NCBI GenBank assembly: GCA_018238155.1
Contig: JABCTZ010000003.1
Coordinates: forward strand, 62,001 to 126,000
Length of the DNA: 64,000 bases
Reading direction: 5' to 3'
Source of the DNA: Candidatus Heimdallarchaeota archaeon
Lineage (GTDB): Archaea; Asgardarchaeota; Heimdallarchaeia; JABLTI01
The position numbers were made by a program, and so were the translations under genes. Positions 38,941 to 45,497 of this stretch are shown piece by piece. The notes beneath the pieces are model-generated. The model was given only the letters and a program-made list of their open reading frames with translations, was not told where the DNA came from and did not search any database. Positions within the stretch are counted from its first letter, which is position 1, and every line of letters begins with the position of its first letter.

Positions 38941-39050
38941 ATTAATTTCTTTATATTTAATAGGATAGAAAAAAGATTTAAATAATTAATATTCTCTGCA
39001 TACATAAGCATAGGGCCGTTAGCTCAGCTTGGTAGAGCAATAGGCTCATA

Positions 39051-39082
39051 AGGCTTGCACTTGCGAGTTCCTGCCTGATGAT
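39051..39082 (+). other. Anticodon-loop intron (position 37/38) of the CAU tRNA
   Basis: 32 nt inserted between A37 and A38. AGGC (39051-39054) and GCCT (39073-39076) form the intron hairpin. TCAT of the anticodon region can pair with ATGA (39078-39081), giving a relaxed bulge-helix-bulge for the archaeal splicing endonuclease. The exact cut may shift by one base because A occurs on both sides. Confidence 0.8.
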
Positions 39083-39103
39083 ACCTATTGGTCACTGGTT
39101 CAA

Positions 39104-39134
39104 GGGATACAAATTGCGATTTGTATCTGAACAA
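39104..39134 (+). other. T-loop intron of the CAU tRNA
   Basis: 31 nt interrupt the T-loop. A perfect 9-bp hairpin, GATACAAAT (39106-39114) with ATTTGTATC (39119-39127) and a TGCG loop, stacks on a 4-bp helix TTCA/TGAA (39099-39102 with 39128-39131), with bulges on either side as expected for a splicing substrate. The tRNA 3' fragments downstream carry the uninterrupted sequence TTCAAATCCTGTAC, confirming what is inserted. The boundary is ambiguous by a base or two. Confidence 0.85.
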
Positions 39135-39230
39135 ATCCTGTACGGCCCACCATTTTCTTCTTGTTTTGATACAAAATCTGTGTTCTATTTTCATTACTGG
39201 TCGTGTGAGATTGATGGTTGTGTTCCCTTT

Positions 39231-39262
39231 TTCCGCGAATTCAAATCGCGCTGGGCCCACCA
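39231..39262 (+). repeat. tRNA 3'-end fragment 1 (type B)
   Basis: TTCAAATCGCGCTGGGCCC followed by ACCA: T-loop, 3' T-stem strand, acceptor strand, discriminator and CCA of a tRNA, with no 5' half. It lies 78 nt after the live tRNA with no gene between. It differs from that tRNA in the stem (CGCGC-TGGGCCC instead of CCTGT-ACGGCCC), so it derives from a different tRNA or has drifted. Cargo gene 39285-40361 ends 22 nt further on. Confidence 0.7.
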
Positions 39263-39284
39263 AATTCTTACTTTTTATTTTATA

Positions 39285-40361
39285 TCAAGATGTTTCTTTA
39301 ATCCCATCTTTACCGTTTTTATACTTCTTTTCTTCAATGGTAATTTGTTTTTCGAGTTTATTCATTTGTTCAATTGCTAAATTTATATTATCAACTAAAA
39401 CTAATCCATTTGTAAGACACTCTTCAGCACACCATTTCCCTGCAATTATTAAGTAAGGTTTCATAAATTCGGTGATTTTCTTAATCTTTTGGATGTAATT
39501 GTTGATTTGTTTCTTAATTGCATTAAAGATTAATTCTCTACTTTTGTCCCAAATTAATAATGATACAAAAACAATACCTAGGATTATTTTCCATTCATTT
39601 GGTAATGCAGAAACAAAATCATAACCTTTCTTTAGAATATTGACAATTTTATCAATAAACGATATAATAAAAACTAATAATCCCCCAATTATTAATGCTC
39701 CCAATTCAAATGTTAAAATTCCTAATAAGGGGATACTTGTAGCAAGTATTACAAAAGAAGCTGATCCTTGTTGGTAAATACTAACTATTTCACAAGATTC
39801 CTTTGTACCTTTCCATGATTTTACACCATCAAGATCGAGCATATCCTTATCTGTTGTTATTATCGCATGTTTTCCTAATTTCAAGAAAAGAGCTACATAC
39901 TCTACATCTTCTTTATCTCTTTCAGCTATCATAGCTTCTGCTTTTTGATAAGCTACGTCATCATCTAAATTTTGATATGTGATCTTGGTTAAAAATTTGG
40001 AAGCTATAACTTCAATTTCTTTGGTATCTTTATTACAATATTCAGCGATACTTTCAATGTGTTTGTTAATCTCATTTTTTATTTTATCAGGTGCTACACC
40101 TAAAACAAATGGTGATTCAAGTAATTCCAATAGAAACGAATGATTATATTTTACATAGGCTCTAATATGCTTATTTAAAATGCTTGCATCGATAATGATT
40201 TGCAATGATATGTTTTGACCCATTTCCAAAATATTGTCTTCAAAAAAACCTTTGATTTGTTCCATAATACTTAGATCTATGTGTTTTACTATTTCCTTAA
40301 TTATCTCTTTTCTATTGTCAAATTTCTTTCTAATTCGTTCCCAATCCTTTTCGTTAAACAT
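39285..40361 (-). CDS. PIN-domain membrane protein (possible toxin/defence nuclease)
   Basis: 358 residues. Residues about 50-195 form a PIN-like RNase domain with acidic residues D58 (IIIDASIL), E97 (NEINKHI), D152 (DKEDVEYV) and D171 (ITTDKDML) in the right order. Two strongly hydrophobic segments (about 202-240 and 257-275) follow, then a helical tail. PIN plus membrane helices is a layout seen in toxin-like and defence effectors; no antitoxin is adjacent. It is the cargo between tRNA fragments 1 and 2, and its stop codon is 22 nt from fragment 1. Confidence 0.75.
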   Translation of the reverse strand: MFNEKDWERIRKKFDNRKEIIKEIVKHIDLSIMEQIKGFFEDNILEMGQNISLQIIIDASILNKHIRAYVKYNHSFLLELLESPFVLGVAPDKIKNEINKHIESIAEYCNKDTKEIEVIASKFLTKITYQNLDDDVAYQKAEAMIAERDKEDVEYVALFLKLGKHAIITTDKDMLDLDGVKSWKGTKESCEIVSIYQQGSASFVILATSIPLLGILTFELGALIIGGLLVFIISFIDKIVNILKKGYDFVSALPNEWKIILGIVFVSLLIWDKSRELIFNAIKKQINNYIQKIKKITEFMKPYLIIAGKWCAEECLTNGLVLVDNINLAIEQMNKLEKQITIEEKKYKNGKDGIKETS

Positions 40362-40444
40362 TTTATCTCAAATCCTTTCCCAGTTTTTCTACACATTTCT
40401 AGCATAAAAAACCTTTCGAGATATTACATTCCATAAAATAAGTG

Positions 40445-40478
40445 TTGGTCACTGGTTCAAATCCTGTACAGCCCACCA
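40445..40478 (+). repeat. tRNA 3'-end fragment 2 (type A)
   Basis: TTGGTCACTGGTTCAAATCC continuing TGTACAGCCCACCA is identical to the spliced 3' part of the live CAU tRNA except for one base in the acceptor strand (A for G), and it has no T-loop intron. Homology begins in the variable loop and ends with CCA plus CTTC, an extension also found at fragment 4. Confidence 0.9.
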
Positions 40479-40497
40479 CTTCATATTTATGAAGAAA

Positions 40498-40746
40498 CTA
40501 AATATCTGAAATTATTTCTTTAATTTCTGCATGAGAGGGAATTCCCTCAAACTTTATTTCACCATCTACAACAATAGATGGTACTGCTTTAATGTTATAC
40601 TTCTTTGCTAATACAACAGCATCAGCTGATTGATTTAAATTATATTCAATGACCTGACATTTTTCACATATTGCTTCTTTTAGTTGTCTTAATGCTGTTT
40701 GGCAAAGAGAACAACCCGCTGTGAATATCTCAAATTTATGACCCAT
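40498..40746 (-). CDS. Thioredoxin/glutaredoxin-like small protein
   Basis: 82 residues with the active-site CSLC (C12, C15) and cis-proline loop VPS (P56) of the thioredoxin fold, closest in style to the small thioredoxin-like proteins of archaea. Two further cysteines (C28, C31) could form a second pair. It is divergent from the HxlR regulator at 40848, 101 nt away, sharing a promoter region. Cargo between fragments 2 and 3; its stop is 19 nt from fragment 2. Confidence 0.88.
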   Translation of the reverse strand: MGHKFEIFTAGCSLCQTALRQLKEAICEKCQVIEYNLNQSADAVVLAKKYNIKAVPSIVVDGEIKFEGIPSHAEIKEIISDI

Positions 40747-40847
40747 TAGTGAAAGTCTCCATTATGCTTGGTTACTAAAAGTAACTAAGTTTACATAAGT
40801 ATTTAAATTGGTGGTTTCCAAGTAGAAACAAAGTATTCAGATGGAAA

Positions 40848-41225
40848 GTGATTCCGATTAAAGAGGAAAAAATAATTTGTCCATTATGCAATATTATGAA
40901 TATTGTTAGTAAAAAATGGTCTTTACTTATAGTTAATACAATAGGCAATACTGCAACAATTAGGTTTAGTGAAATAAAGAGAAATCTGCGAACGATAAAT
41001 TCCAAAGTTTTATCTGATAGATTAAAAGAGCTCGTACAAGCAGAGATCATAAACAGGAAATCAAAAGACTCAGTACCACCACATGTTGAATACTCTTTAA
41101 CTGATAAAGGAAAATCATTACGCAAAGCAATAATGCCACTTCTTGATTGGTTTTATTCCTACAATGAGAAAGGAAGAATAACCCCATGCGATATAGCATA
41201 TCAGATTGAAAGGGTTGAGAAATGA
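40848..41225 (+). CDS. HxlR-family winged-helix regulator
   Basis: 125 residues from GTG. CPLCNIMNIVSKKWSLLIVN is the HxlR signature: a cysteine followed by K-W-S-L-L-I; then RFSEIKRNLRTINSKVLSDRLKEL and HVEYSLTDKGKSL form the winged helix. HxlR proteins often sense oxidants through this N-terminal cysteine; here there is a C11-x-x-C14 pair. Divergent from the thioredoxin-like gene, it probably controls it. Together they form one cargo module. Confidence 0.92.
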   Translation: MIPIKEEKIICPLCNIMNIVSKKWSLLIVNTIGNTATIRFSEIKRNLRTINSKVLSDRLKELVQAEIINRKSKDSVPPHVEYSLTDKGKSLRKAIMPLLDWFYSYNEKGRITPCDIAYQIERVEK

Positions 41226-41375
41226 AATCACTATCCCTACCCGACGAAAAAAGTATATCATATTTTGGCATGTTGATTTTTCCTAGTAATCATTGAGCAT
41301 TAAATTTCAAAACATTAATAGTATCTTTGTAGATAAAGTCGACTTCATAACTGATCGATTTAAGTAACAATTCTG

Positions 41376-41409
41376 TTGATCACTGCTTCAAATTCTGTAC
41401 GGTCCACCA
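41376..41409 (+). repeat. tRNA 3'-end fragment 3 (type A)
   Basis: TTGATCACTGCTTCAAATTC continuing TGTACGGTCCACCA: the live tRNA's spliced 3' end with four substitutions and no intron. The methyltransferase stop codon lies 12 nt further on. Confidence 0.88.
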
Positions 41410-41421
41410 GTTTTTTCCTTT

Positions 41422-42048
41422 CTAGGTTTTTTGCACAATGTAATCTATTGTGATACTTTGGCATTGTTTCTCATTGTGAACGTAACCAAAGCTTGTTATT
41501 CCTTTGTGAAGTAGTTTTAATCCAGTAAAGAGTTCATCCGCTTCATCAATGTTATAAAAGGAATGAAAAGTATCTTCAAATCCATATTTACCTGCTTTTG
41601 AGATATCTAGCATTTCATTATCGCCAATATCTTTTCCCTCTTTTATGAAAGCTGAATCAGTTGATTGAAAATTAATGTACAGTAAACCACCTTTCTTTAG
41701 CACTCGAAGCATTTCTTTGACCGCTTTTTTAGTACCTGCTTTCGTAAGATGCTCAATCGTGTTATAAGAATATGCGAAACTAAATGACTCATCTTCATAT
41801 GACAATTCTCGTATATCTGCTTTAATTATTTTATAATCAAGGTTATTTTCTTCTGCATATTTTTGTGCTCTCTCTCTCTGAGTATCAGAAATTTCCACTC
41901 CGTGTGCTTCATACCCTCGTTCACCAAAGACTGTTATTTTAGGCTCGGATCCACCAGCACCACAATCCAAAATCCTTTTTTCAAAATCACTTTTTTCTGT
42001 GAATTCCAAAAATCTCTCTATTTCTTGTGGGATAGTAAAAGTAACCAT
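41422..42048 (-). CDS. SAM-dependent methyltransferase, class I
   Basis: 208 residues. ILDCGAGGSEPKI is motif I of the Rossmann methyltransferase fold, VEIS the acidic end of strand 2, ADIREL motif II, and FSFAYSYNTIEHL plus LRVLKKGGLLYINF the later motifs. The family covers many substrates, and none is suggested here. It is the only gene between tRNA fragments 3 and 4, with its stop 12 nt from fragment 3. Confidence 0.9.
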   Translation of the reverse strand: MVTFTIPQEIERFLEFTEKSDFEKRILDCGAGGSEPKITVFGERGYEAHGVEISDTQRERAQKYAEENNLDYKIIKADIRELSYEDESFSFAYSYNTIEHLTKAGTKKAVKEMLRVLKKGGLLYINFQSTDSAFIKEGKDIGDNEMLDISKAGKYGFEDTFHSFYNIDEADELFTGLKLLHKGITSFGYVHNEKQCQSITIDYIVQKT

Positions 42049-42094
42049 AATCCATTATTTAGACTGGTAAATTATTAAATATTTTACAACTCTT

Positions 42095-42126
42095 GAAAAC
42101 TGGTTCAAATCCTGTACGACCCACCA
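42095..42126 (+). repeat. tRNA 3'-end fragment 4 (type A)
   Basis: ACTGGTTCAAATCCTGTACG continuing ACCCACCA: identical to the spliced T-arm and acceptor of the live tRNA except for one acceptor base, and intronless. The upstream variable-loop part has decayed (GAAA instead of GGTC). It is followed by CTTC as at fragment 2. Confidence 0.88.
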
Positions 42127-42283
42127 CTTCTTCTATTAATACCGACAAAGATAATCACGTTACAAAAAAAGCAACCGATTTTTTTATATAAAACCTTGAA
42201 ATAGGAAGTTTGTGAATAGTAGCAACTAATTTTTCTCTCTATAATACTGATTATTACAATTCAAACTTCAGAATGCTCTCTGA

Positions 42284-42508
42284 TTACTTAGCTAATTTGA
42301 AAAACTCTTCTTTTGATAATTTGGAATCGTTGATGATTTTTAACAGTAGGCCTTTTCCTAATGTTTCTCCTTTGTGATCTGGAACTACAATTAATCTGCC
42401 GTCTGGGTGTTTTAAAATTACATGACTTCCTTTTCTTCGAGTAACCACAAAACCGATTTTTGTTAAAGTTTTAATAACTTTTGTTGCTGTTAGAGGTTTC
42501 AGTTTCAT
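42284..42508 (-). CDS. hicA: HicA family toxin (mRNA interferase)
   Basis: 74 residues. GFVVTRRKGSHVILKHPDGR carries the catalytic histidine (H29) of the double-stranded-RNA-binding-like HicA/YcfA fold, followed by VVPDHKGETLGKGLL. HicA cleaves mRNA and is neutralised by HicB. Its start overlaps the end of hicB by 4 nt, an antitoxin-first order. Cargo between fragments 4 and 5. Confidence 0.93.
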   Translation of the reverse strand: MKLKPLTATKVIKTLTKIGFVVTRRKGSHVILKHPDGRLIVVPDHKGETLGKGLLLKIINDSKLSKEEFFKLAK

Positions 42509-42741
42509 TCAATTGGAACCTCTATGAATTGAATGCCTACAAAATCCTTTTGTAAATTTCTTTTGAATTCAGAATCAACAGTTTCCAAATAAAGATCTAC
42601 TGCTTCTTCCATTCTTTGAATTAATTGATTTAGTGATTTTGCTTGTGTATAACAACCTGGCAGTTCTGGTGCAGAAGCAATAAAATAGCCATCTTGATCT
42701 TTTTCGATTAGAATGGTGATTTTCTTCATATCTGTTGTCAT
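42505..42741 (-). CDS. hicB: HicB family antitoxin
   Basis: About 78 residues from ATG 42741; the open frame extends upstream but ITILIEKDQDGYFIASAPEL is the normal HicB start, and PGCYTQAKSLNQLIQRMEEA completes the partial RNase H-like fold. There is no C-terminal DNA-binding domain, so autoregulation may need another factor. It overlaps hicA by 4 nt. Confidence 0.93.
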   Translation of the reverse strand: MTTDMKKITILIEKDQDGYFIASAPELPGCYTQAKSLNQLIQRMEEAVDLYLETVDSEFKRNLQKDFVGIQFIEVPIE

Positions 42742-42993
42742 TTCTTTTTTGCTCCTTGATACTATTACCCAAATATAATATATAAATAAGATTATTTCTT
42801 TAGCTAACATTTTTTATCTATTTATGCCTATCTTTACCTAAATGACTTTCAAATTTTTTATGTAGGGTATTTAGAAGAAGTTGGACACTCCTTTCAATCT
42901 TGTTAGCAAATAAAACTGACACTTTCTTTTTCAGATAATGCTGCAAGAGAACTCCCGTCACTTGAGCGCGTGAAGTTTAGTGTTGTTTTCCCT

Positions 42994-43024
42994 TTGGTCA
43001 CTGGTTCAAATCCTGTACACCCAT
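42994..43024 (+). repeat. tRNA 3'-end fragment 5 (type A, damaged end)
   Basis: TTGGTCACTGGTTCAAATCC continuing TGTACACCCATG: identical to the live tRNA from variable loop to T-stem, intronless, with one base lost in the acceptor and the CCA altered. It ends the hicAB interval. Confidence 0.85.
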
Positions 43025-43224
43025 GAAATTCTCTCTTGAAAGAGCTATTTTCGAATAATAATTGGTAAAGCTATATGAGCTATAGTTTTATAAAGGATGG
43101 ATAAAAGTCTTCTATTGTATACATTTAATGAAACATTGAGTTAGGAATGAATAAATTTTTGGTAATTAGTAACTTTCAAGTTTGAATTCTCAAATCTTAT
43201 CTTTTAATTTCTTTGCAATATTTA

Positions 43225-43407
43225 ATGTATAACAAAATAACAAGTGAATCAAAAATGATTAACGGCTATAACCGCGAACCAAGAGAAATGCACAAAGTTA
43301 CTTGTGCCGAATGTGGAATTGAGACTGAAGTACCCTTCAAACCTGATGGCGAACGACCTGTTTACTGTCGCGACTGCTACCAAAAGCGCAAACCAAGTAG
43401 ATATTAG
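43225..43407 (+). CDS. Small zinc-ribbon protein (CxxC...VPFKPDG...CxxC)
   Basis: About 60 residues from the ATG near 43225 (a TTG four codons earlier is possible). KVTCAECGIETEVPFKPDG, then RPVYCRDCYQKRKP, is the pattern of a small, common archaeal and bacterial zinc-ribbon family, sometimes linked to RNA polymerase or ribosomes. It is the only gene between fragments 5 and 6 and points away from the tRNA, unlike most cargo. Confidence 0.8.
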   Translation: MYNKITSESKMINGYNREPREMHKVTCAECGIETEVPFKPDGERPVYCRDCYQKRKPSRY

Positions 43408-43502
43408 AATTAACTAATCTACGAATCATTCCTAGTTGAATTATAATTCATTTTATATTTCAAACTAGTTTTTTTTTATTATTAGCTTTAATTTAATACA
43501 AG

Positions 43503-43533
43503 GTTGACTGCTCAAATCGTACTGGGCAAGCCA
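43503..43533 (+). repeat. tRNA 3'-end fragment 6 (type B, degenerate)
   Basis: GACTGCTCAAATCGTACTGGG continues with CAAGCCA and resembles fragments 1 and 7 (TCAAATCGCGCTGG...CCA) with several changes; the T-loop has lost a T. On its own it would not be convincing; its position 23 nt before the next cargo stop codon and its likeness to fragments 1 and 7 support it. Confidence 0.55.
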
Positions 43534-43556
43534 GTTTACTTTTGATTCTCCAAAAG

Positions 43557-44150
43557 TCAAAAATCTGTCTTTAAAGAAAATCGTTTATCAATCCACTTCT
43601 TGATATCTTCTGCCGAATCAGATTCGGGATAATATCCTTTAGGATCACCATCTTTGTTTCTTGCTTCTTCGGCTTTATCAGAGACATCTTCAACTTTTAT
43701 CAAATTCCCTTCTTCAAAATCAAATTTTAGTACAGTTTGAAAAGAAGTAGGGCTTGGATATCCCATATGAACGTATTCCTCTAGAATAGGTTTATTACCT
43801 AATAACAATGATCCCGTGAATGGGAGTTTCAAGTATACATCTTTGTAATAATATCTGAAACCCAGACCACGTAATCCCCCTGGATTATATTCTTTTGTTA
43901 TCTTTAAAGGGGCAGTATTATTTATTATTGGAGGTTTTATTCCATCAGCTGTTCGTACCCAAAATCCTTCCATAAACAATTTATTATCCTTTATTTCATA
44001 TCTCATGATATACCCCCTCCAACAGCCTGTAGATGCAGACCTAGTTTTAATTTCAAACGTTTCCGCAGTATCTAATTCGGAGCCTGTGATTCCCACAATC
44101 ATTAATTGATTTCCTTCATAATAGAATAGATCTGAAGCTTGTTGTGTCAT
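43557..44150 (-). CDS. Hypothetical protein in tRNA-associated cassette
   Basis: 197 residues, soluble, beta-rich, with aromatic and glycine-rich stretches (STGCWRGYIMRYEIKDNKLFM, GGLRGLGFRYYYKDVYLKL) and a charged C-terminal segment ending IKKWIDKRFSLKTDF. No signal peptide. No family recognised. Its stop lies 23 nt from tRNA fragment 6. The signal peptidase gene begins farther upstream on the same strand, 98 nt away, so the two may share a transcript. Confidence 0.65.
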   Translation of the reverse strand: MTQQASDLFYYEGNQLMIVGITGSELDTAETFEIKTRSASTGCWRGYIMRYEIKDNKLFMEGFWVRTADGIKPPIINNTAPLKITKEYNPGGLRGLGFRYYYKDVYLKLPFTGSLLLGNKPILEEYVHMGYPSPTSFQTVLKFDFEEGNLIKVEDVSDKAEEARNKDGDPKGYYPESDSAEDIKKWIDKRFSLKTDF

Positions 44151-44248
44151 GATTTAATACCAGTTCTTATTTATGTTTAATTCTCCTTAAATTTACCGAT
44201 TTTCGCAGATAAAACACGCACAGATTCACTAGATTCTTTCTTTATTTC

Positions 44249-45382
44249 TCAGAAAATAAATATCTCTGTCAGAACATCTGTCCATGTTCTTCCAAATTTA
44301 GTATTGAGGTGTGCTATTGCTGATATGGTATTTTCTGATCCTTTTATTAGCAAATTAGTTGGAACCCAAACACAAATACTAACTGTTTTTTGTCCTTCAA
44401 AATTGTATATAGCTGTCCAAATTCCTTCTCCAATGATATGACTTGTATTATCCTTTATCTGCAGGTCAAAGCTTCTGAATTCTTGGTGCCAGTGCCCTGG
44501 ATTGTTAATTGTTACATGTATAATAATTGAAGTGGTATTAATTTCTCCATGCAAAAAGAAACTGTTTGAATAACCTTCTTTATAATTTACATCAACGACT
44601 CCAAAACTGCTTCCCCAATTAGCGTTGGTTGTATCAATAATCGGGACTAGAATAATGATGAAGAGAATGAATCCTGGCATTACAAAATGCTTTTGTTTCC
44701 TTATCTTTTTGAAGGTGATTGCAAAGAAATTGCGAACCCTCTTTTCTTTATCCTCCACCTTCTCTGCTTCCTTTTCCTCTTTACGTTTGAGTAAACCAAA
44801 TGTTGTTACCATTAGAAAAATAATTACTGCACCAACAAGTAGTATGTAACGTCCCATCTCTCCTTGGAAGTAATAGAATATCCCTCCAATGAATGGTATT
44901 TTTCCAATAATTTTACCCACAACCCTGCTTTCATGGATGTTCAATTCATCTACTCGTCCAGTAGGAATCTCAATTACAAAAACATTATTAGAATTCGGGT
45001 TGTCTCCTTTTGTAGAAAACCAAAAATCTCCTGTTTTATTGTCTTGATAAACTCTCGTTACTCGGTGGACTATCGGAATATTCTCTTCTGTGTGGTTGAT
45101 ATAATTAAAAACTATTACATCACCTACTTTTATTTCTGAAGAATCAACTCCTCGTACTATCAACATATCTTTTCGAATGTCGCCAAATTTTCCTCCTTTG
45201 TCAAGTCTTCTTGAACCGTAGTACGTAGGCTCCATTGATTCGGAAGTTACTACTACGAGAGGAGAATTTGTGTTAAGTGCTAAACAAAGTACTTGATTGA
45301 AACTTAGAATGCCTCCCACACAAATTATTATTAATGCACTAATTGCAATAACATCTTTCCGCCAGCTCGTTTTCTTAGACAT
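44249..45382 (-). CDS. Signal peptidase I, archaeal/ER (S26B) type, with extra C-terminal domain
   Basis: 377 residues, far longer than usual (about 150-200). TSESMEP holds the nucleophile S49; VHRV gives H106 in place of a lysine, and TKGDN gives D127, the Ser-His-Asp set of SEC11-type enzymes. The first membrane helix is at 10-35; a second (about 176-195) and third (about 236-255) follow, then a C-terminal extracytoplasmic domain (from DTTNANWGSSFG) of about 120 residues resembling an Ig-like sandwich. Dedicated peptidases processing specific surface proteins have such layouts. Cargo between fragments 6 and 7. Confidence 0.88.
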   Translation of the reverse strand: MSKKTSWRKDVIAISALIIICVGGILSFNQVLCLALNTNSPLVVVTSESMEPTYYGSRRLDKGGKFGDIRKDMLIVRGVDSSEIKVGDVIVFNYINHTEENIPIVHRVTRVYQDNKTGDFWFSTKGDNPNSNNVFVIEIPTGRVDELNIHESRVVGKIIGKIPFIGGIFYYFQGEMGRYILLVGAVIIFLMVTTFGLLKRKEEKEAEKVEDKEKRVRNFFAITFKKIRKQKHFVMPGFILFIIILVPIIDTTNANWGSSFGVVDVNYKEGYSNSFFLHGEINTTSIIIHVTINNPGHWHQEFRSFDLQIKDNTSHIIGEGIWTAIYNFEGQKTVSICVWVPTNLLIKGSENTISAIAHLNTKFGRTWTDVLTEIFIF

Positions 45383-45465
45383 TTATCTTTCTCTTCCCTT
45401 ATTTTTCTACGTAGCTTTCTCTAATTTGGATAAAGTATTTTCCTTTATATTAAATATTAGAATCA

Positions 45466-45497
45466 AGTTGTGTGTTCAAATCGCGCTGGATTCACCA
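45466..45497 (+). repeat. tRNA 3'-end fragment 7 (type B)
   Basis: GTGTGTTCAAATCGCGCTGG continuing ATTCACCA: a full T-arm (GTGTG/CGCGC, with wobble pairs) plus acceptor strand TGGATTC, discriminator and CCA. It shares TTCAAATCGCGCTGG with fragment 1. It is the farthest fragment from the live tRNA and marks the outer end of the recognisable array. Confidence 0.75.

What the first reader, a model, noticed from the sequence alone, without database searches (positions are those of the whole stretch)
39099..39136. T-loop intron interrupts the integration target; downstream scars are intronless
The live tRNA has a 31-nt insertion with a perfect 9-bp hairpin inside the T-loop. Four downstream copies (40445, 41376, 42095, 42994) carry the uninterrupted TTCAAAT-type sequence. 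So the window preserves the before-intron state next to the after-intron state. It has been proposed that tRNA introns and split tRNAs protect against integration at tRNA genes; this locus looks like a natural case where the target was hit several times and then broken by an intron.
Basis: partly seen in the sequence, partly recalled or inferred. Interest (0 to 1): 0.86.

Follow-up and report, generated by a model that had tools for sequence, protein, structure and literature searches.

The report
Intron splits a reused tRNA target
In a Heimdallarchaeial (Asgard) archaeon, a tRNA gene whose end was copied downstream at least four times by inserting DNA now carries a small spliceable intron exactly in the part the insertions used, but related introns in the same genus did not stop insertions, so the idea that such introns protect tRNA genes becomes testable here rather than proved.

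Summary
Confirmed: the window holds a tRNA gene with anticodon CAT (39013-39152), with a 37/38 intron and a 31-nt T-loop intron (39104-39134, position 58/59) that fits a strict archaeal bulge-helix-bulge motif at only one of four equivalent placements. Four downstream tRNA 3'-end scars (40445, 41376, 42099, 42994) are intronless and carry this genome's own T-stem allele, so they record the pre-intron state of this lineage. Three sister genomes have the same tRNA without the T-loop intron; the intron occurs once in 57 related genomes.

Corrected: not all scars are intronless. That intron family also sits in live tRNA-Lys, -Ile and -Ala genes of the genus and in a cassette scar of G004 whose homologous junction is intronless in four sisters. 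So a T-arm intron as such did not block integration. The 53/54 intron re-creates the target's CGCG..TTCAAAT..CGCG repeat; the 58/59 intron breaks the M-type repeat and is never found in a scar. 'Hit several times, then broken by an intron' is supported as an order of events. Protection is unproven; element-borne or neutral gain remains open.

The parts
38977..38985 (+). TATA-like promoter element (TTTAAATAA), 28-36 nt upstream of the tRNA
   Evidence: GATTTAAATAA stands at a similar distance upstream of the CAT tRNAs of G006 and G004:C78; promoter function is inferred
39013..39050 (+). exon 1 of tRNA(CAT), M-type
   Evidence: Rfam tRNA 42.3 bits for 39013-39149; spliced tRNA and stems
39051..39082 (+). 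intron 1 at position 37/38 (32 nt)
   Evidence: related intron at the same position in G006:C98 and in the 5' fragments of G045:C42 and G007:C192; absent from G007:C89 and G004:C29
39083..39103 (+). exon 2 (38-58), ends TTCAA in the T-loop
39104..39134 (+). intron 2 in the T-loop, position 58/59, 31 nt, 9-bp hairpin (10-11 pairs with wobble)
   Evidence: strict BHB: bulges AA|G and AA|A, central helix GTTC/GAAC; null 1e-5 for inner helix of 9 or more; only copy in 57 genomes
39135..39152 (+). exon 3 (59 to CCA)
39197..39262 (+). I-type tRNA 3'-end scar that contains a 53/54 T-arm intron (39208-39239)
   Evidence: homologous to live tRNA-Lys/-Ile-GAT/-Ala T-arms with the same intron family; core 0 mismatches, none expected
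39285..40361 (-). cassette gene, PIN_2 domain protein (358 aa)
   Evidence: PF10130; 84% identical DNA in the G007 array
40445..40478 (+). M-type scar 1, intronless
   Evidence: 1 mismatch in 32 to the spliced live tRNA end
40498..40746 (-). cassette gene, Thioredoxin_3 domain
   Evidence: PF13192
40848..41225 (+). cassette gene, HxlR regulator
   Evidence: PF01638; DNA from 40890 to 41281 is 91% identical in G002 array
41376..41409 (+). M-type scar 2, intronless
   Evidence: 4 mismatches in 32
41422..42048 (-). cassette gene, SAM methyltransferase
   Evidence: PF08241; 95% identical DNA in G007, G003, G005 between I-type scars
42099..42126 (+). M-type scar 3, intronless, 5' part missing
42284..42810 (-). 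cassette genes, HicA toxin and HicB-like antitoxin
   Evidence: PF07927, PF15919
42994..43023 (+). M-type scar 4, intronless, decayed 3' end
43502..43533 (+). possible decayed I-type scar
   Evidence: 9 mismatches in 32; none reached in 200 shuffled queries
45466..45497 (+). I-type scar, decayed
   Evidence: 6 mismatches in 32; 3 in the 23-base core

Best explanation
The live gene is a working tRNA with anticodon CAT (not the initiator) that contains two introns removed by the archaeal splicing endonuclease. Its 3' part (variable loop to CCA) is the attachment site of small mobile gene cassettes. Each integration rebuilds the tRNA and leaves the displaced 3' end as a scar downstream. At least four such events used an intronless version of this tRNA in this lineage (shown by scars with the lineage's own T63 allele). 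Later a 31-nt BHB intron was gained at 58/59, inside the T-loop that separates the two T-stem half-sites. Inferred: because it moves those half-sites from 7 to 38 bases apart and offers no substitute, further integration is hindered; this is a by-product of intron gain that may or may not have been selected. T-arm introns in general are not a barrier: the 53/54 family rebuilds the half-site at the same spacing and occurs inside scars.
For: BHB fits strictly at only one of four sequence-equivalent placements. Two anticodon-stem pairs (27-43, 28-42) changed on both sides relative to the sisters, across the 37/38 intron, so the gene is under selection as a tRNA. The sister tRNAs of G004, G006 and G007 lack intron 2, and the intron is found once in 57 genomes. 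M-type scars in G000 read CCTGTAC like the G000 tRNA; those in G007 read CCGGTAC and those in G004 CCGATAC like their own tRNAs. Scars far exceed chance. No scar with the 58/59 intron exists in G000, whereas 53/54-intron scars exist and keep CGCG-NN-TTCAAAT-CGCG.
Against: One locus in one draft genome (90.7% complete). No integrase is present in the array, so the recombinase and its true core site are unknown and the half-site argument is an inference. The T-stem has a T51-T63 mismatch. Absence of a 58/59-intron scar may only reflect little elapsed time. No RNA data.
Confidence: 0.62

Rival explanations
1. The intron came in with the most recent element: its attP carried the intron, and integration swapped an intron-bearing 3' end into the live gene while pushing the intronless host copy to 40445. 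This is the model of Sugahara and colleagues for Caldiarchaeum tRNA-Thr.
For: Geometry fits exactly: the copy next downstream of the same type (40445) is intronless. The 53/54 intron family shows T-arm introns within att copies. Published precedent PMC3293823 and review PMC8371274.
Against: No element or contig with a 58/59-intron attP was found; the intron is unique in 57 genomes and IMG/VR holds no exact intronless M- or I-type att (the intron form was not searched there). The first cassette downstream (PIN_2) also occurs in G007, where the tRNA is intronless, but with a different right-hand scar.
Confidence: 0.3
2. Neutral intron transposition: the intron is a copy of another tRNA intron of the same genome (tRNA-Val GAC, 37/38) that landed in the T-loop, with no relation to integration.
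For: Best match among 18 introns by a wide margin (score 30, next 16), sharing AAATTGCGATTT and the hairpin; about 1% for the best of 18 random hairpin introns. Non-canonical introns are common in Asgard tRNAs (PMC11291895).
Against: The match is short and does not favour the own genome's Val intron over that of G007. Landing inside the att core of a repeatedly hit gene would be coincidence, although the T-arm also holds introns in Lys, Ile and Ala tRNAs.
Confidence: 0.35
3. The live gene is a pseudogene and the insertion is debris.
For: T51-T63 mismatch; ARAGORN with bacterial settings did not report it, as expected for a gene with two introns.
Against: Strict BHB, full acceptor pairing, compensatory changes in the anticodon stem, a TATA-like element upstream, Rfam score over the cut-off. 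The T63 mismatch is already in the scars and so predates the intron.
Confidence: 0.05
4. The scars are intronless because they were copied from spliced tRNA (RNA-templated), not because they predate the intron.
For: Scars lack the intron of the present gene.
Against: Scars with introns exist (39197-39262; G004:C59:3520).
Confidence: 0.03

Closest known systems
Caldiarchaeum subterraneum tRNA-Thr(GGU) locus (PMC3293823)
   Same: Intron gain in a tRNA gene linked to integration of a mobile element, with tRNA fragments left nearby; protection against further integration discussed
   Different: There the intron is at 24/25 and arrived with one element carrying a recombinase gene, and the fragment is a 5' half. 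Here it is at 58/59 in the T-loop, with four intronless 3' scars, no recombinase in the array, and comparison across a genus
Randau and Soll hypothesis that introns and split tRNAs protect against integration (as cited in PMC3293823 and PMC4390854)
   Same: Intron sits inside the attachment site and follows repeated use of the site
   Different: Another T-arm intron family in the same genus sits in scars, so protection would depend on where the intron falls; selection is not shown
Archaeal BHB tRNA introns at non-canonical positions (Atabeyarchaeia and Freyarchaeia, PMC11291895)
   Same: Short hairpin introns, several per tRNA, outside 37/38, in Asgard archaea
   Different: Here intron history can be read against dated-by-order copies of the same tRNA end
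tRNA-targeted elements of Heimdallarchaeum (aloposons, HeimV1; PMC8813620)
   Same: Integration at tRNA genes in the same broad group
   Different: Here 0.7-2 kb cassettes with one or two cargo genes and no integrase
Archaeal integrons (PMC9668308)
   Same: Arrays of short gene cassettes, enriched in Asgard archaea
   Different: Boundaries are tRNA 3' ends, and no integron-type integrase was identified among the tyrosine recombinases found; cassette arrays start at a tRNA

Membership tests
Archaeal BHB-spliced tRNA intron | two 3-nt bulges separated by a 4-bp helix at the splice sites | tested here: met
   AA|G, GTTC/GAAC, AA|A with inner helix of 11 pairs incl. wobble; null 1e-5 for 9 or more
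Archaeal BHB-spliced tRNA intron | removal gives a canonical tRNA | tested here: met
   77-nt tRNA with full acceptor, anticodon and T-stem except T51-T63
Archaeal BHB-spliced tRNA intron | splicing in the cell | not testable with these tools
   needs RNA sequencing
tRNA-targeted integration site (tyrosine integrase type) | intact tRNA followed by displaced copies of its 3' end in direct orientation | tested here: met
tRNA-targeted integration site (tyrosine integrase type) | integrase gene in the element | tested here: not met
   array genes checked in the window are PIN_2, thioredoxin, HxlR, methyltransferase, HicAB; tyrosine recombinases of G000 lie on other contigs and one is a stand-alone gene with conserved neighbours
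Protective intron (Randau and Soll) | intron lies within the attachment site | tested here: met
   58/59, between the T-stem half-sites
Protective intron (Randau and Soll) | intron-bearing sites are not used for integration | tested here: inconclusive
   58/59: no intron-bearing scar; 53/54 family: intron-bearing scars exist
Protective intron (Randau and Soll) | interrupted site fails to recombine | not testable with these tools
   needs recombinase assay
attP-borne intron (Sugahara model) | element with an intron-bearing attP | tested here: inconclusive
   none found for 58/59; intron-bearing scars of the 53/54 type could have this origin
Integron cassette array | integron integrase with attC sites | not tested
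   no attC search was run; Rfam gathering search of the window returned only the tRNA, and no tyrosine recombinase was found next to the array

The most novel reading that the evidence does not exclude
In this genus the position of T-arm introns reflects a contest over the tRNA attachment site: the 53/54 family rebuilds the half-site and travels in attachment sites between tRNA genes and elements, while the 58/59 intron destroys the site and shields the tRNA. Intron position would then decide between vehicle and shield.
Probability: 0.15. Interest if true: 0.82.

Novelty: new variant of a known kind. Interest (0 to 1): 0.55.

Why it matters
The proposal that tRNA introns shield tRNA genes from mobile DNA has had few loci on which it could be tested. 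Here one genus offers the target before and after intron gain, sisters without the intron, and a second intron family in the same arm that did not prevent integration. That gives a direct comparison of two intron positions in one recombination system and shows that the simple form of the proposal, that any T-arm intron protects, is wrong in this genus.

Tried and rejected
IMG/VR scans for exact M- and I-type attachment sites gave nothing. The idea that G006 is a clean empty site was dropped: its tRNA has no scars, but the downstream genes are in another order. The idea that the G000 Val intron is a closer match than that of G007 was tested and failed. A split-tRNA reading of the 39197-39262 fragment was considered; no separate 5' half was found in G000 and the fragment lacks a proper anticodon-stem strand. 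The conserved 351-aa tyrosine recombinase was considered as the cassette integrase; its syntenic, stand-alone position fits a chromosomal XerA-like role equally well. RNA-templated scars were rejected because intron-bearing scars exist.

Full report
What is there. The window is contig 21, bases 62001-126000, of a 4.08 Mb draft genome. Records that hold the same tRNA are named Candidatus Heimdallarchaeota or Asgard group archaea. At 39013-39152 lies a tRNA with anticodon CAT (Rfam 42.3 bits). The initiator tRNA is a different gene (L011). Whether this one is elongator Met or Ile2 was not decided. Removing 39051-39082 (37/38) and 39104-39134 (58/59) gives a 77-nt tRNA.

The T-loop intron is a proper intron by sequence. 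Four placements of the 31 nt are equivalent. Only the one at 58/59 gives a strict bulge-helix-bulge motif: bulges AA|G and AA|A, central helix GTTC/GAAC, and an inner helix of 11 pairs counting wobble pairs. Shuffled introns reach an inner helix of 9 or more with frequency 1e-5. Compared with the sister tRNAs, two anticodon-stem pairs (27-43 and 28-42) changed on both sides, although the two strands lie on either side of the 37/38 intron. That argues for a working tRNA. The T-stem has one mismatch, T51-T63.

The scars. Copies of the variable loop to CCA end lie at 40445, 41376, 42099 and 42994 in the M-type of the live tRNA, all uninterrupted. The 18-base core is expected 0.04 times and found four times. 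All four read CCTGTAC, the allele of this genome. The M-type scar in G007 reads CCGGTAC and those in G004 and G005 CCGATAC; the live tRNAs of G007 and G004 read the same as their scars, and no live M-type tRNA was found in G005. So the scars record an intronless tRNA of this very lineage, after it had gained T63. Together with the three sisters without the intron (G004, G006, G007) and its single occurrence in 57 genomes, intron gain after the integrations is the simplest order.

At 39197-39262, 45 bases behind the live tRNA, lies a scar of another type (I-type...TTCAAATCGCGCTGGGCCCACCA). It contains a T-arm intron at 53/54 (39208-39239). Relatives of this intron sit at the same position in live tRNA-Lys of G000, G001, G005 and G008, in tRNA-Ile(GAT) of G003 and G004, and in tRNA-Ala of G006. 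They end in TTCCGCGAA and follow the same cutting rule. A search for this 3' end finds the family in 7 of 9 genomes of the genus and in none of 48 others of the class. The I-type scar arrays are also confined to this genus, apart from single tRNA-like matches in G033 and G045. Both facts reflect one clade and are not independent tests.

Does a T-arm intron prevent integration? Not in general. The junction made of the 3' end of a TPR-like gene and an I-type scar is intronless in G002, G003, G005 and G007, and carries the 53/54 intron in G004 (alignment A1). An attachment site with that intron was therefore recombined. The sequence offers a reason. The 53/54 intron ends in CGCGAA, so CGCG-2 nt-TTCAAAT-CGCG stays at the original spacing. 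The 58/59 intron pushes the T-stem half-sites apart and brings TATCTG where CACTGG was. No scar with the 58/59 intron exists in G000. That the T-stem halves are the recombinase half-sites is an inference; the review of archaeal recombinases places cleavage at the borders of tRNA loops for several integrases (PMC8371274).

Where did the intron come from? Two routes are open. Its best match among 18 introns compiled from this genome is the 37/38 intron of tRNA-Val(GAC) (score 30, next 16), which the best of 18 random hairpins reaches in about 1% of trials. That hints at intron transposition. Alternatively it arrived with the attP of the latest element, as proposed for Caldiarchaeum (PMC3293823). 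In the window both give the same picture.

The surrounding array. Between the scars lie small cassettes: PIN_2 protein, thioredoxin plus HxlR, methyltransferase, HicAB. The methyltransferase cassette is 95% identical in G000, G007, G003 and G005, but stands between M-type scars in G000 and I-type scars elsewhere, so cassettes move between the two kinds of site. In G007 the same tRNA, intronless, heads an array that reaches a distal flank shared with G000. No integrase was found in the G000 array.

Verdict. Observation largely right, with one scar overlooked that matters. The order 'integrations, then intron' is supported. Protection is possible for the 58/59 intron, contradicted for T-arm introns in general, and not shown as a cause.

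Noticed in passing
window 39153-45497; G007:C89 (L068, L069): Arrays of small one- or two-gene cassettes bounded by tRNA 3' ends behind one tRNA, with the same cassette in different arrays and next to different scar types; no integrase found in the window's array. The system looks integron-like in layout and deserves its own study.
   Followed up: partly
G007:C192:22080-22135 (L070); G045:C42:201-261 (L088): Orphan 5' half of a CAT tRNA with a conserved upstream region and the start of the 37/38 intron, followed by T-rich DNA without a 3' half: relic or split tRNA half.
   Followed up: partly
G004:C78:5181-5279 (L073): CAT tRNA with D-loop and 53/54 introns but broken anticodon and acceptor stems; looks like a decaying copy of the I-type tRNA.
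   Followed up: partly
L002/L101 (G000:C11:52856-52930) and L084 (G008:C7): Live tRNA-Lys(TTT) with an intron in the D-loop and another at 53/54 of the T-arm.
   Followed up: partly
L174 (G007:C229, about 0.8 kb behind tRNA-Val GAC): A small ribbon-helix-helix plus PIN-like gene pair followed by a Val-like tRNA 3' scar: the cassette system seems to use other tRNAs too. Read by eye, not tested.
   Followed up: no
L068:5908-6987 and L068:10385-11041: Reverse-strand cassette genes read into the scar and stop on a TGA inside it, so the scar supplies the end of the protein (GGPSAI).
   Followed up: no
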